Shown one piece after another: positions 56,223 through 58,386 of a stretch of 64,000 bases of DNA. Positions within the stretch are counted from its first letter, which is position 1; every line of letters begins with the position of its first letter. The DNA lies in NCBI RefSeq assembly GCF_022807975.1, contig NZ_CP094358.1:2728001-2792000 (forward strand). Direction: 5' to 3'. The DNA comes from Abyssalbus ytuae. Its GTDB lineage: Bacteria > Bacteroidota > Bacteroidia > Flavobacteriales > Flavobacteriaceae. A model generated the notes under the pieces. It saw only the letters and a list, made by a program, of their open reading frames with translations, was not told the DNA's origin and did no database searches. The position numbers and the translations under genes were made by a program.

Positions 56223-56550
56223 AGAGTATCTTCAATATCCTTCATGTTTTTAATCATTTCATGGCAACTTCTTCATAAATCATATATCAGGGGTTTATTC
56301 CATATAAAAAACACTCCCTGCTTTACAGAGTATATTCTCAAAGATTAGTATATCCGCTCCATAAAATCAAATATTACAATCATTAATTACTGAAAAAATG
56401 TTGTCCATATTCCTTAAAAAAGCTCCCTAAAAAAGAGTGGATACTTCGTGAAATTTCAAAAAATAAGCAACTAAAATATTTTCGTGGTTATCTATTTAAC
56501 AGAATATGGTTAGAAATTTAACACTTTATACTTATTATTCTTATAAAATG
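56223..56550. other. AT-rich non-coding stretch after putA
   Basis: No ORF, repeat or structured element is seen here. Together with the repeat cluster that follows it makes a 785-base gene-free gap between putA and the HU-like gene. Confidence 0.6.
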
Positions 56551-56755
56551 TAGTTACGAAATAAATATTTCGTAAGCCGAAAATAACAAAAACCTAAGCA
56601 CAAAAGGAAAGATTCCTGCCTAACGCTTAATAAAAACATAGTTACGAAACAAAAAACTTCTAGTTACAAAAATAAAATTCCCTAAGCAGGGAATGAACAT
56701 TTTCTAGTTACAAAAAAAATTTTTGTAAGCACGAAAAAAAATTTCGTAAGCACAA
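56551..56755. repeat. Cluster of palindromic TAGTTAC...GTAAGC repeats
   Basis: TAGTTAC occurs at 56551, 56639, 56661 and 56705; TAAGC follows at 56573, 56595, 56684, 56726 and 56747. Unit 1 (56551-56577) folds with TTACGAAAT/ATTTCGTAA (9 bp, 4-base loop). The unit at 56705-56730 folds with TTACAAAAA/TTTTTGTAA (9 bp, 3-base loop); here the G-C pair of unit 1 is replaced by A-T in both arms. The unit at 56731-56750 has ACGAAA/TTTCGT. A different insert, ATTCCCT/AGGGAAT, lies at 56677-56694. One more TAGTTACGAA is found at 57397. The repeats are downstream of the HU-like gene. Confidence 0.65.
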
Positions 56756-56891
56756 AATTGAAAAATATATGGGTAAAAGCTTTATGGAATGTAAGGGAAA
56801 ACCTTAATAAATTAAGGTGCAGATTTTGAAGATTTTATTGTGAGATTTTTAAAAAGAAGGAAATAAGGGGCAAACGGGAGGGCGTGGCAAG

Positions 56892-57284
56892 CTATGGGGT
56901 GGGAGCTTTATAAAAGCCAAGGGTTTTGAGCATATTTTTTATTTTGCTACCGGGAGTAAACAATACCTTTTGGTTTTTAACCGAATGGGCCGTTACTTCC
57001 TCTGGGGTATCATGGCCATGGCTGCTTATGCTTACCCGCATGGAACCCAGGTCCCCCAGGCGCACTATACGGCCTTCGGCCAGTTCATCGGTGGCTACAT
57101 CTACCAGGGCATAGAGCACGGCACGTACATCGGCACCGCTTACGGTGCTTATTTTCTCAATACGGGTGGTAAGGGCCTCTATATTAGTTTCGCCTGTAGT
57201 AATGCCGGTTGCATAATATTTTTTGGTGCCCCCGCCGGCTACCCCGGGTTGGCCTCTTTCTATTACTTTAAATGGTATACTCAT
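56892..57284 (-). CDS. HU-like (HU_rel) DNA-binding protein
   Basis: 130 residues of the Bacteroidota histone-like HU_rel family (TIGR01201 type): KYYATGITTGETNIEALTTR, SGADVRAVLYALVDVATDEL, EGRIVRLGDLGSMRVSISSH and the C-terminal LFTPGSKIKNMLKTLGFYK. This is the HU fold with an extended C-terminus; expected to bind DNA as a dimer. GC is near 60% over 57001-57120 by hand count, far above the window average, which suggests transfer or strong codon bias. It stands alone with the repeat cluster at its 3' side. Confidence 0.85.
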   Translation of the reverse strand: MSIPFKVIERGQPGVAGGGTKKYYATGITTGETNIEALTTRIEKISTVSGADVRAVLYALVDVATDELAEGRIVRLGDLGSMRVSISSHGHDTPEEVTAHSVKNQKVLFTPGSKIKNMLKTLGFYKAPTP

Positions 57285-57639
57285 AATGGTAAGGTTTTTT
57301 GTTTAACTTGGCCATGAAGATAGTTTTTACTTAAAAAAGGCCAAAAGAACAGGGGTATACAAAAGGTTACAGGATGTGGGAAAATTTACGAATAACTAGT
57401 TACGAAGGACAATTTTTCGATTGAAGATTTATTGATAATCAGGAGAAGAAGAGAGAAAGCAGGAAAAAACCGGGAAAGGAGATGGCAAAAAGTATTTTTC
57501 CTGTTGTTTGGGAGGTCCCTTCCATACTTAGTGAAGAGAAACAGCAGGTAAATTTTGAATATTGGGTTGCAGTACTATTTGGTAATGTTCCCGGTATAAT
57601 AACTAAACTGGCTATATGTTTTTAGCCTTCTTTTTATTT
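57285..57639. other. Gene-free gap between the HU-like gene and the duplicated-domain gene
   Basis: 355 bases without a supportable ORF. It holds one isolated TAGTTACGAA repeat copy at 57397-57406, related to the cluster at 56551. The presumed promoter of the HU-like gene is in the 57285-57400 part, but no clear -7 box was found. Confidence 0.5.
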
Positions 57640-58386
57640 TCAGATTTTATACCGTTTAAATTCCAATCCTGATATCTGACGGTATTGAGGACTTGATGCT
57701 CCATAGAGAGATTTTACATAGGCTTTTACTTTTAATGCTCTGTCAATAAGTCCTTCTTCACTGGTGTAAAGGAGGTTGTTACGTTTTAGGCGGGCATTGC
57801 TCAAGGGTATTTCGGTAGCAGTTGCATTGCTGTTTTTTGCCCTCAGGTCTTCAAACAGTTTTGTGAGTGACATTACCTGCAATTCTGTTTCATTGGGATT
57901 ATATTGTGGTATAGAACTGAGAATATTGATTAATTTTTCAAAATTATCTATGCGGTTGTCAAAGCTTAACCGTGAGGAAGAGCTCTTTTTCGCATCTTTA
58001 CCCTGTTCACTCATTTTTTGTTTTTTTTCTTCGGTTGGTTTGATGGAGGTTTTCCTGCCCTGGATTTTGCGTGCAATTGTAATGGCTTTATCTTTTACTT
58101 CGGGGCTTGCTCCGGTTGCTTTAAGCCCGTTTATTACCCGTGTAATTAATTTGCTTAAAGGTTTGAAGGCAATTTCCCGGGCGGCTATGGCATTATTGTA
58201 AGCGGGTAGTGCGGTGTTTAAGTCATTTACGGTATTCTGCGCATCGGCATATAAAATGGTTAATGCTTTAAGTGTGATACTTATATTTGATGGATTGTAA
58301 TCGGCTCCATACCCAGTGCAAAAGGAAACTAGTTTTGCAAAGTTGGCTACGTTTTTTGCATGGCCTGTTTCAGTTTTTTTACTCAT
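57640..58386 (-). CDS. Lineage-specific helical protein made of two related halves
   Basis: 248 residues, no signal peptide. The N-terminal half (about 10-105: NVANFAKLVSFCTGYGADYN...) and C-terminal half (about 147-245: RIDNFEKLINILSSIPQYNP...) share one pattern: N-F-x-K-L, then Y-N-P, a helix with L-T-x-L, then A-x-x-x-R-x, and a last helix with K-A-x-G-A-S-x-P/Y-G-A-S-S-P. A Lys/Ser/Glu-rich linker (108-140) joins them. The end KSLYGASSPQYRQISGLEFK is a block I recognise from hypothetical flavobacterial proteins. Start context TTACCATTATGAGTA is shared with the HU-like gene. Function unknown. Confidence 0.72.
   Translation of the reverse strand: MSKKTETGHAKNVANFAKLVSFCTGYGADYNPSNISITLKALTILYADAQNTVNDLNTALPAYNNAIAAREIAFKPLSKLITRVINGLKATGASPEVKDKAITIARKIQGRKTSIKPTEEKKQKMSEQGKDAKKSSSSRLSFDNRIDNFEKLINILSSIPQYNPNETELQVMSLTKLFEDLRAKNSNATATEIPLSNARLKRNNLLYTSEEGLIDRALKVKAYVKSLYGASSPQYRQISGLEFKRYKI

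What the first reader, a model, noticed from the sequence alone, without database searches (positions are those of the whole stretch)
56551..57406. Palindromic repeat cluster with compensatory change beside the HU-like gene
Units of TAGTTAC(G/A)AA-n-TT(C/T)GTAAGC(AC) form 6-9 bp stems. In one unit the G-C pair is swapped to A-T in both arms, which shows that the dyad itself is maintained. One more half unit lies on the other side of the HU-like gene. Possible mobile REP/MITE-like units, binding sites of the HU-like protein, or recombination sites.
Basis: partly seen in the sequence, partly recalled or inferred. Interest (0 to 1): 0.6.

Follow-up and report, generated by a model that had tools for sequence, protein, structure and literature searches.

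The report
22-bp palindrome array beside HU-like gene
Next to a gene for an unusual HU-like DNA-binding protein sits a row of small mirror-symmetric DNA sites spaced exactly two turns of the helix apart, and relatives of this gene across the Bacteroidota phylum carry such a row at the same place with different letters but the same symmetry and spacing, which points to an undescribed DNA-organising element.

Summary
The palindromes are real but are pieces of something larger. Window 56451-56769 is an array of 14 units at 21-22 bp steps, each a short dyad around a 6-bp core. It belongs to a ~960-bp cassette (56451-57412) with the HU-HIG gene (PF18291). The genome has four more full-length cassettes (each with a strongly diverged ORF), two array-only copies and at least six partial or short arrays. 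Between cassettes the array is ~90% identical; the gene is 45-75%.

The main result is general. In Bacteroidota, HU-HIG genes are often followed, 0-300 bp after the stop codon, by an array with 22-bp period (54 of 82 downstream segments; none after 19 more distant HU-type genes; almost nowhere else within 4 kb). Arms change in a compensated way, so symmetry and spacing are kept while sequence drifts. Mismatches show no strand bias, and some arrays lie beyond a terminator, so this looks like a DNA site, not RNA.

Mechanism is inferred: most likely a phased platform recognised by shape, by the linked HU-HIG protein or another architectural protein. Array sequence does not track HU-HIG similarity, which weighs against sequence-specific recognition. 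No insertion signature was found. I found no description of this in the papers I could search.

The parts
56451..56769 (+). 22-bp-period palindrome array, 14 six-base cores (TAAGCA, TGGTTA, TGGTTA, TACTTA, TAGTTA, TAAGCC, TAAGCA, TGCCTA, TAGTTA, TAGTTA, TAAGCA, TAGTTA, TAAGCA, TAAGCA)
   Evidence: core positions; 89-92% identical to four other cassettes; genome copies
56770..56891 (.). spacer between array and HU-HIG stop codon; conserved to about 56820, then divergent
56892..57284 (-). HU-HIG family DNA-binding protein, 130 aa, intact; its stop codon faces the array
   Evidence: PF18291 E 2.2e-34 and TIGR01201 E 5.4e-25; HU-like fold of the AlphaFold2 model
57285..57412 (.). upstream end of the cassette, conserved in the other four cassettes (54-78%), after which similarity stops
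57397..57406 (+). lone half unit TAGTTACGAA near the far edge of the cassette (GAGTTACGA or similar in the other copies); outside the 22-bp array

Best explanation
The array is a double-stranded DNA site: a run of ~18-bp palindromes spaced 22 bp, that is about two helical turns, so every dyad faces the same side of the helix. It belongs to HU-HIG cassettes, where it lies beyond the 3' end of the gene. What is maintained is symmetry and phasing, not sequence, so I infer recognition by shape (bendable or cruciform-prone dyads in phase), most likely by the linked HU-HIG protein, since HU-family proteins are known to bind bent, branched and hairpin DNA, giving a local nucleoprotein patch or boundary between neighbouring, often convergent, transcription units. 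Shown: anatomy, conservation, location, DNA-level symmetry, dispersal. Inferred: the protein that binds, the shape recognition and the boundary role.
For: Strict 22-bp lag confined to the first ~300 bp after HU-HIG stop codons in 47 loci. Arrays also in independent samples and none after 19 weaker, HU-type hits. Three to four Watson-Crick pair types at each main arm position across 40 arrays. Arm mismatches balanced between strands, GT/TG 62 vs AC/CA 57, so no RNA wobble signal. Terminator-like hairpin between gene and array in 6 of 40 loci. Array ~90% identical between cassettes while the ORF is 45-75% and flanks are near random. In 397 family genomes the only two with many diverged-unit TA-type arrays are the only two with a close HU-HIG. 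Array-only loci: 11 convergent, 9 tandem, 1 divergent. HU-like fold.
Against: No binding data. HU-HIG identity does not predict array motif across genera (Spearman 0.04; 254 of 1000 permutations at least as high). Many arrays lie away from any HU-HIG gene. Some more distant HU-HIG genes have no array. The model lacks obvious long DNA-bending arms (inspection). Convergent placement would also suit a terminator, REP-like or gyrase-type element.
Confidence: 0.42

Rival explanations
1. REP/BIME-like repetitive element: the array is a selfish or tolerated extragenic palindrome mobilised by an unlinked enzyme, and the HU-HIG gene is a frequent passenger or accessory.
For: Dispersed full, array-only and partial copies in the own genome; intergenic, often convergent placement; motif independent of HU-HIG similarity; arrays without HU-HIG in several genomes.
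Against: No target duplication or terminal inverted repeat seen at the copies (by inspection); units vary freely in sequence within one array, unlike REP families; tight link to the gene's 3' end across many lineages.
Confidence: 0.25
2. Transcriptional element: tandem bidirectional terminators or RNA hairpins at gene ends.
For: Placement at 3' ends and between convergent genes; strong single-strand folding of the window array (z -5.2); some units have A-run, stem, T-run layout.
Against: No G-U bias on either strand; a separate terminator precedes the array in at least 6 loci; many arrays have T-run first and A-run last, the wrong order for a terminator; fixed 22-bp spacing is not needed for RNA hairpins; no Rfam match to the array.
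Confidence: 0.17
3. Recombination sites: arrays serve cassette exchange, for example of the mosaic surface-protein genes behind HU-HIG and array in Riemerella and Bergeyella.
For: Palindromic arms around a 6-bp core resemble tyrosine-recombinase site layout; repeated cassettes with conserved ends and variable middle lie just beyond the arrays; several contigs end close behind HU-HIG.
Against: No linked recombinase seen in the window cassette; cores differ between neighbouring units of one array; most arrays have no such cassette downstream.
Confidence: 0.1
4. Sequence-specific cognate operator of each HU-HIG protein (autoregulation).
For: Different HU-HIG paralogues of one genome carry different arrays.
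Against: No correlation between protein and motif: 82-90%-identical Riemerella HU-HIGs have different motifs, 50%-identical ones share one; the array is downstream, not at the promoter.
Confidence: 0.06

Closest known systems
REP/BIME elements with their RAYT (Y1 transposase) genes
   Same: Short extragenic palindromes, often at gene 3' ends, dispersed, with one gene type flanked by the same repeats (general knowledge).
   Different: Linked gene is a non-catalytic HU-fold protein; strict 22-bp phase; sequence free between lineages.
BrickBuilt minisatellite MITE of Porphyromonas gingivalis (PMC4596501)
   Same: Bacteroidota, intergenic tandem array of similar period, many copies; one copy lies beside a gene annotated as PF00216 DNA-binding protein.
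   Different: 23-nt unit AGAYCATARTATCCTCTCRTRTG is not palindromic by inspection; element has terminal inverted repeats like those of IS5-family elements; species-specific sequence.
P. gingivalis HU PG0121 and the 77-bp inverted repeat of the capsule locus (PMC3969353)
   Same: HU protein of Bacteroidota discussed together with an inverted repeat; shape rather than sequence at issue.
   Different: One large inverted repeat, not a 22-bp array; reported binding was non-discriminatory.
Plasmid iterons and other phased binding-site arrays
   Same: Repeats spaced about two helical turns, linked to a DNA-binding protein gene (general knowledge).
   Different: Iterons are sequence-specific direct repeats with a Rep initiator; no Rep here.
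HU-HIG / HU_rel family (PF18291, TIGR01201)
   Same: The linked protein is a clear member.
   Different: The 3' array was not found described in the papers I could search; the 2017 paper that I recall as defining the HIG group is not held and could not be read.

Membership tests
HU-HIG (PF18291) / HU_rel (TIGR01201) | profile match above curated cut-off | tested here: met
   118.6 vs 26.2 bits and 88.2 vs 68.6 bits
HU-HIG (PF18291) / HU_rel (TIGR01201) | HU fold | tested here: met
   AlphaFold2 pLDDT 88.6; Foldseek top hits are HU proteins, prob 0.99, though E 0.05 and only partial overlap
REP/BIME with RAYT | linked Y1/REP-associated tyrosine transposase gene | tested here: not met
   gene inside the cassette is HU-HIG, not a transposase; presence of a Y1 gene elsewhere in the genome was not searched
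REP/BIME with RAYT | extragenic palindromes at gene 3' ends, many copies | tested here: met
MITE (BrickBuilt-like) | terminal inverted repeats and target duplications | tested here: inconclusive
   none seen at the edges of five cassettes (by inspection); no empty site available because the genus has one genome
Iteron array | linked replication initiator and direct repeats of one sequence | tested here: not met
   the linked gene is HU-HIG; units differ within arrays
RNA family in Rfam | match to a described RNA | tested here: not met
   nothing over the window array; only weak sub-threshold hits next to it
Integron attC / recombinase site | recombination by a cognate recombinase | not testable with these tools
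   function needs experiment; no recombinase in the cassette

The most novel reading that the evidence does not exclude
A widespread, undescribed DNA-architecture system of Bacteroidota: HU-HIG proteins paired with phased palindrome arrays that are recognised by symmetry and helical phase rather than sequence, forming defined nucleoprotein boundaries and spreading as cassettes.
Probability: 0.33. Interest if true: 0.88.

Novelty: new variant of a known kind. Interest (0 to 1): 0.72.

Why it matters
HU-type proteins are textbook non-specific DNA binders with few defined sites. A gene family that carries its own row of phased palindromes, conserved in symmetry and spacing across a phylum while the sequence changes freely, would give defined natural sites for a nucleoid protein, a clear test of shape recognition, and a handle on why some Bacteroidota keep many HU-HIG copies. 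In Riemerella and Bergeyella the arrays sit directly before mosaic secreted-type protein genes, so surface variation may be involved.

Tried and rejected
Chance or A/T slippage: rejected by reversed-pattern controls and by the exact lag. Sequence-specific co-evolution with HU-HIG: Mantel-type test negative. RNA structure: no G-U bias, no Rfam family; the partial Bacteroidales-2 hit at 57293-57343 is 25 of 204 bits and treated as chance. Transposon ends: no terminal repeats or duplications seen. ORF 57640-58386 as part of the cassette: rejected, absent from the other copies and from all fetched HU-HIG loci of other genomes. First dyad scan with perfect 5-bp arms was too strict (22 paired dyads in total, about half from one locus) but already showed the 22-bp spacing. 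Automatic terminator scan found only 6 of 40; more were seen by eye (L073, L094/L174, L114, L115, L181) but are not counted. Literature: BrickBuilt and PG0121 papers checked; literal array sequences found in no held paper.

Full report
WHAT IS THERE. They are members of a continuous array of 14 units: six-base cores start at 56464, 56485, 56507, 56529, 56551, 56573, 56595, 56617, 56639, 56661, 56683, 56705, 56726 and 56747, steps of 22 bp with three of 21 (the 56617 core, TGCCTA, is the reverse complement of TAGGCA and was read by hand).

ONE CASSETTE AMONG SEVERAL. A DNA search of the own genome (4.37 Mb, one contig) gave seven near-full array copies at 84-100% and smaller pieces. Four other copies (C1 1.091, 1.910, 2.165 and 4.089 Mb) are full-length cassettes of about 960 bp: array, a 146-aa ORF on the opposite strand in the place of the HU-HIG gene, and the end with a GAGTTACGA-like half unit. 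That ORF resembles HU-HIG only in its C-terminal half and is strongly diverged; dN/dS between the more distant copies is 0.48-0.68, which suggests weak constraint. Region by region, window against the others: array 89-92% identical, ORF 45-48%, flanks at random level; among the others array 89-93%, ORF 70-75%. The array is the best-kept part. Two copies (2.259, 0.385 Mb) are array only, and at least six further places carry partial or short arrays with similar arms.

A GENERAL RULE. Relatives of the HU-HIG protein were fetched from named genomes. Downstream of their stop codons lie arrays of other sequence but the same build. With a fixed test (68% identity over 44 bp at a given lag), lag 22 scored in 18 of 47 loci in the first 100 bp and 8 in the next, with a spill-over of 6 in the bin before and almost none in all other bins within 4 kb; lag 21 scored in 6 and lags 17-20 and 23-27 in none in these bins. 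Independent genomes of the phylum agree: arrays behind L114, L115, L118 and L119, not behind L116, L117, L120-L123, and none behind the 19 weaker hits L124-L142, which I take as ordinary HU-type genes from their low scores. More distant HU-HIGs of the family show further motifs such as AACGTT, TACGTA, TGCGCA and GACGTC. A chain search for phased dyads scored above all of 30 shuffles, with at least 3 units, in 54 of 82 segments; some of the weakest of these, and near-duplicates, were left out of the later statistics.

SYMMETRY, NOT SEQUENCE. In 169 units of 40 arrays the arms are complementary in 65-86% at offsets 3-9 from the centre, against 27-48% when arms of different units are paired; all four Watson-Crick pair types occur at offsets 3, 4, 5 and 7 and three at offset 6 (units were pre-selected for at least 5 of 9 matches, which inflates the first figure but not the variety of pair types). 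Mismatches are GT/TG 62 and AC/CA 57: no strand is favoured, as expected for DNA and not for an RNA helix. In six loci a strict terminator-like hairpin lies between gene and array.

LINK TO THE PROTEIN. In 397 genomes of the family the four-core pattern was frequent with diverged units only in the own genome and G218 (39 and 14 matches); these are also the only two with an HU-HIG match better than 1e-40. G374 and G229 also gave hits, but from near-identical tandem repeats, and the remaining eight are single, chance-like hits. Against a simple lock-and-key model, HU-HIG identity and array motif are uncorrelated across genera (rho 0.04). Arrays also occur away from HU-HIG; 11 of 21 such loci are between convergent genes and 1 between divergent genes (in the window 5 of 56 neighbouring ORF pairs are convergent).

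MECHANISM. HU-family proteins are known to prefer bent, branched and hairpin DNA (general knowledge; for the P. gingivalis HU PG0121 see PMC3969353, which reports non-discriminatory binding). A phased row of dyads whose sequence drifts but whose symmetry and spacing stay is what shape recognition would leave behind. I therefore favour a nucleoprotein platform or boundary, with HU-HIG the most likely partner, at 0.42. The model has an HU-like fold but, by inspection, no obvious long bending arms, so the binding mode may differ from ordinary HU.

COMPARISON. BrickBuilt (PMC4596501) is a 23-nt minisatellite in a MITE of P. gingivalis with IS5-like ends; its consensus is not palindromic. REP/RAYT systems share dispersal and a linked gene, but here the gene is not a transposase. 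I found no earlier description in the searchable open library; a subscription paper that I recall as defining the HIG group could not be read.

LIMITS. No binding or expression data; no close relative of the own genome for empty-site analysis; the sample of arrays is biased to HU-HIGs similar to the window's; coordinates of array ends are good to a few bases.

Noticed in passing
L068, L071, L077, L102, L108 (Riemerella anatipestifer), L083, L085 (Bergeyella zoohelcum), L076; downstream of HU-HIG and array: Multi-copy secreted-type proteins (MKTKTTKLSVLAFLGLG..VGIN..ATLEVQ) with conserved first ~125 residues, conserved last part and variable middle follow the arrays: a mosaic gene family that looks like surface variation.
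   Followed up: partly
L049, L050, L051, L052 (own genome, 2.165, 1.091, 4.089, 1.910 Mb): Four copies of a 146-aa ORF, open in all copies, that resembles HU-HIG in its C-terminal half but has lost most invariant residues; dN/dS 0.48-0.68 between the more distant copies. New protein or slow decay is open.
   Followed up: partly
window 57640-58386 (-): 248-aa ORF upstream of the HU-HIG gene without Pfam or NCBIfam family, single copy in the genome.
   Followed up: no
L057, L058, L059 and downstream of HU-HIG in L063, L073, L094: A CCCCTGTAAATACAGGGG-like hairpin recurs beside several arrays; it has the same build (palindromic arms, 6-base centre TAAATA) and may be another unit or a terminator.
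   Followed up: no
half-cores of 40 arrays: Half-cores are far from even: TGC, TAG, TAA and ACG dominate in unrelated lineages, a hint of a weak common core code.
   Followed up: no
L203, L204 (Parabacteroides and Bacteroides plasmid records): A more distant HU-HIG type sits in a different setting: small protein plus carboxypeptidase-type hydrolase or N-acetylmuramoyl-L-alanine amidase, DUF4248 nearby.
   Followed up: no
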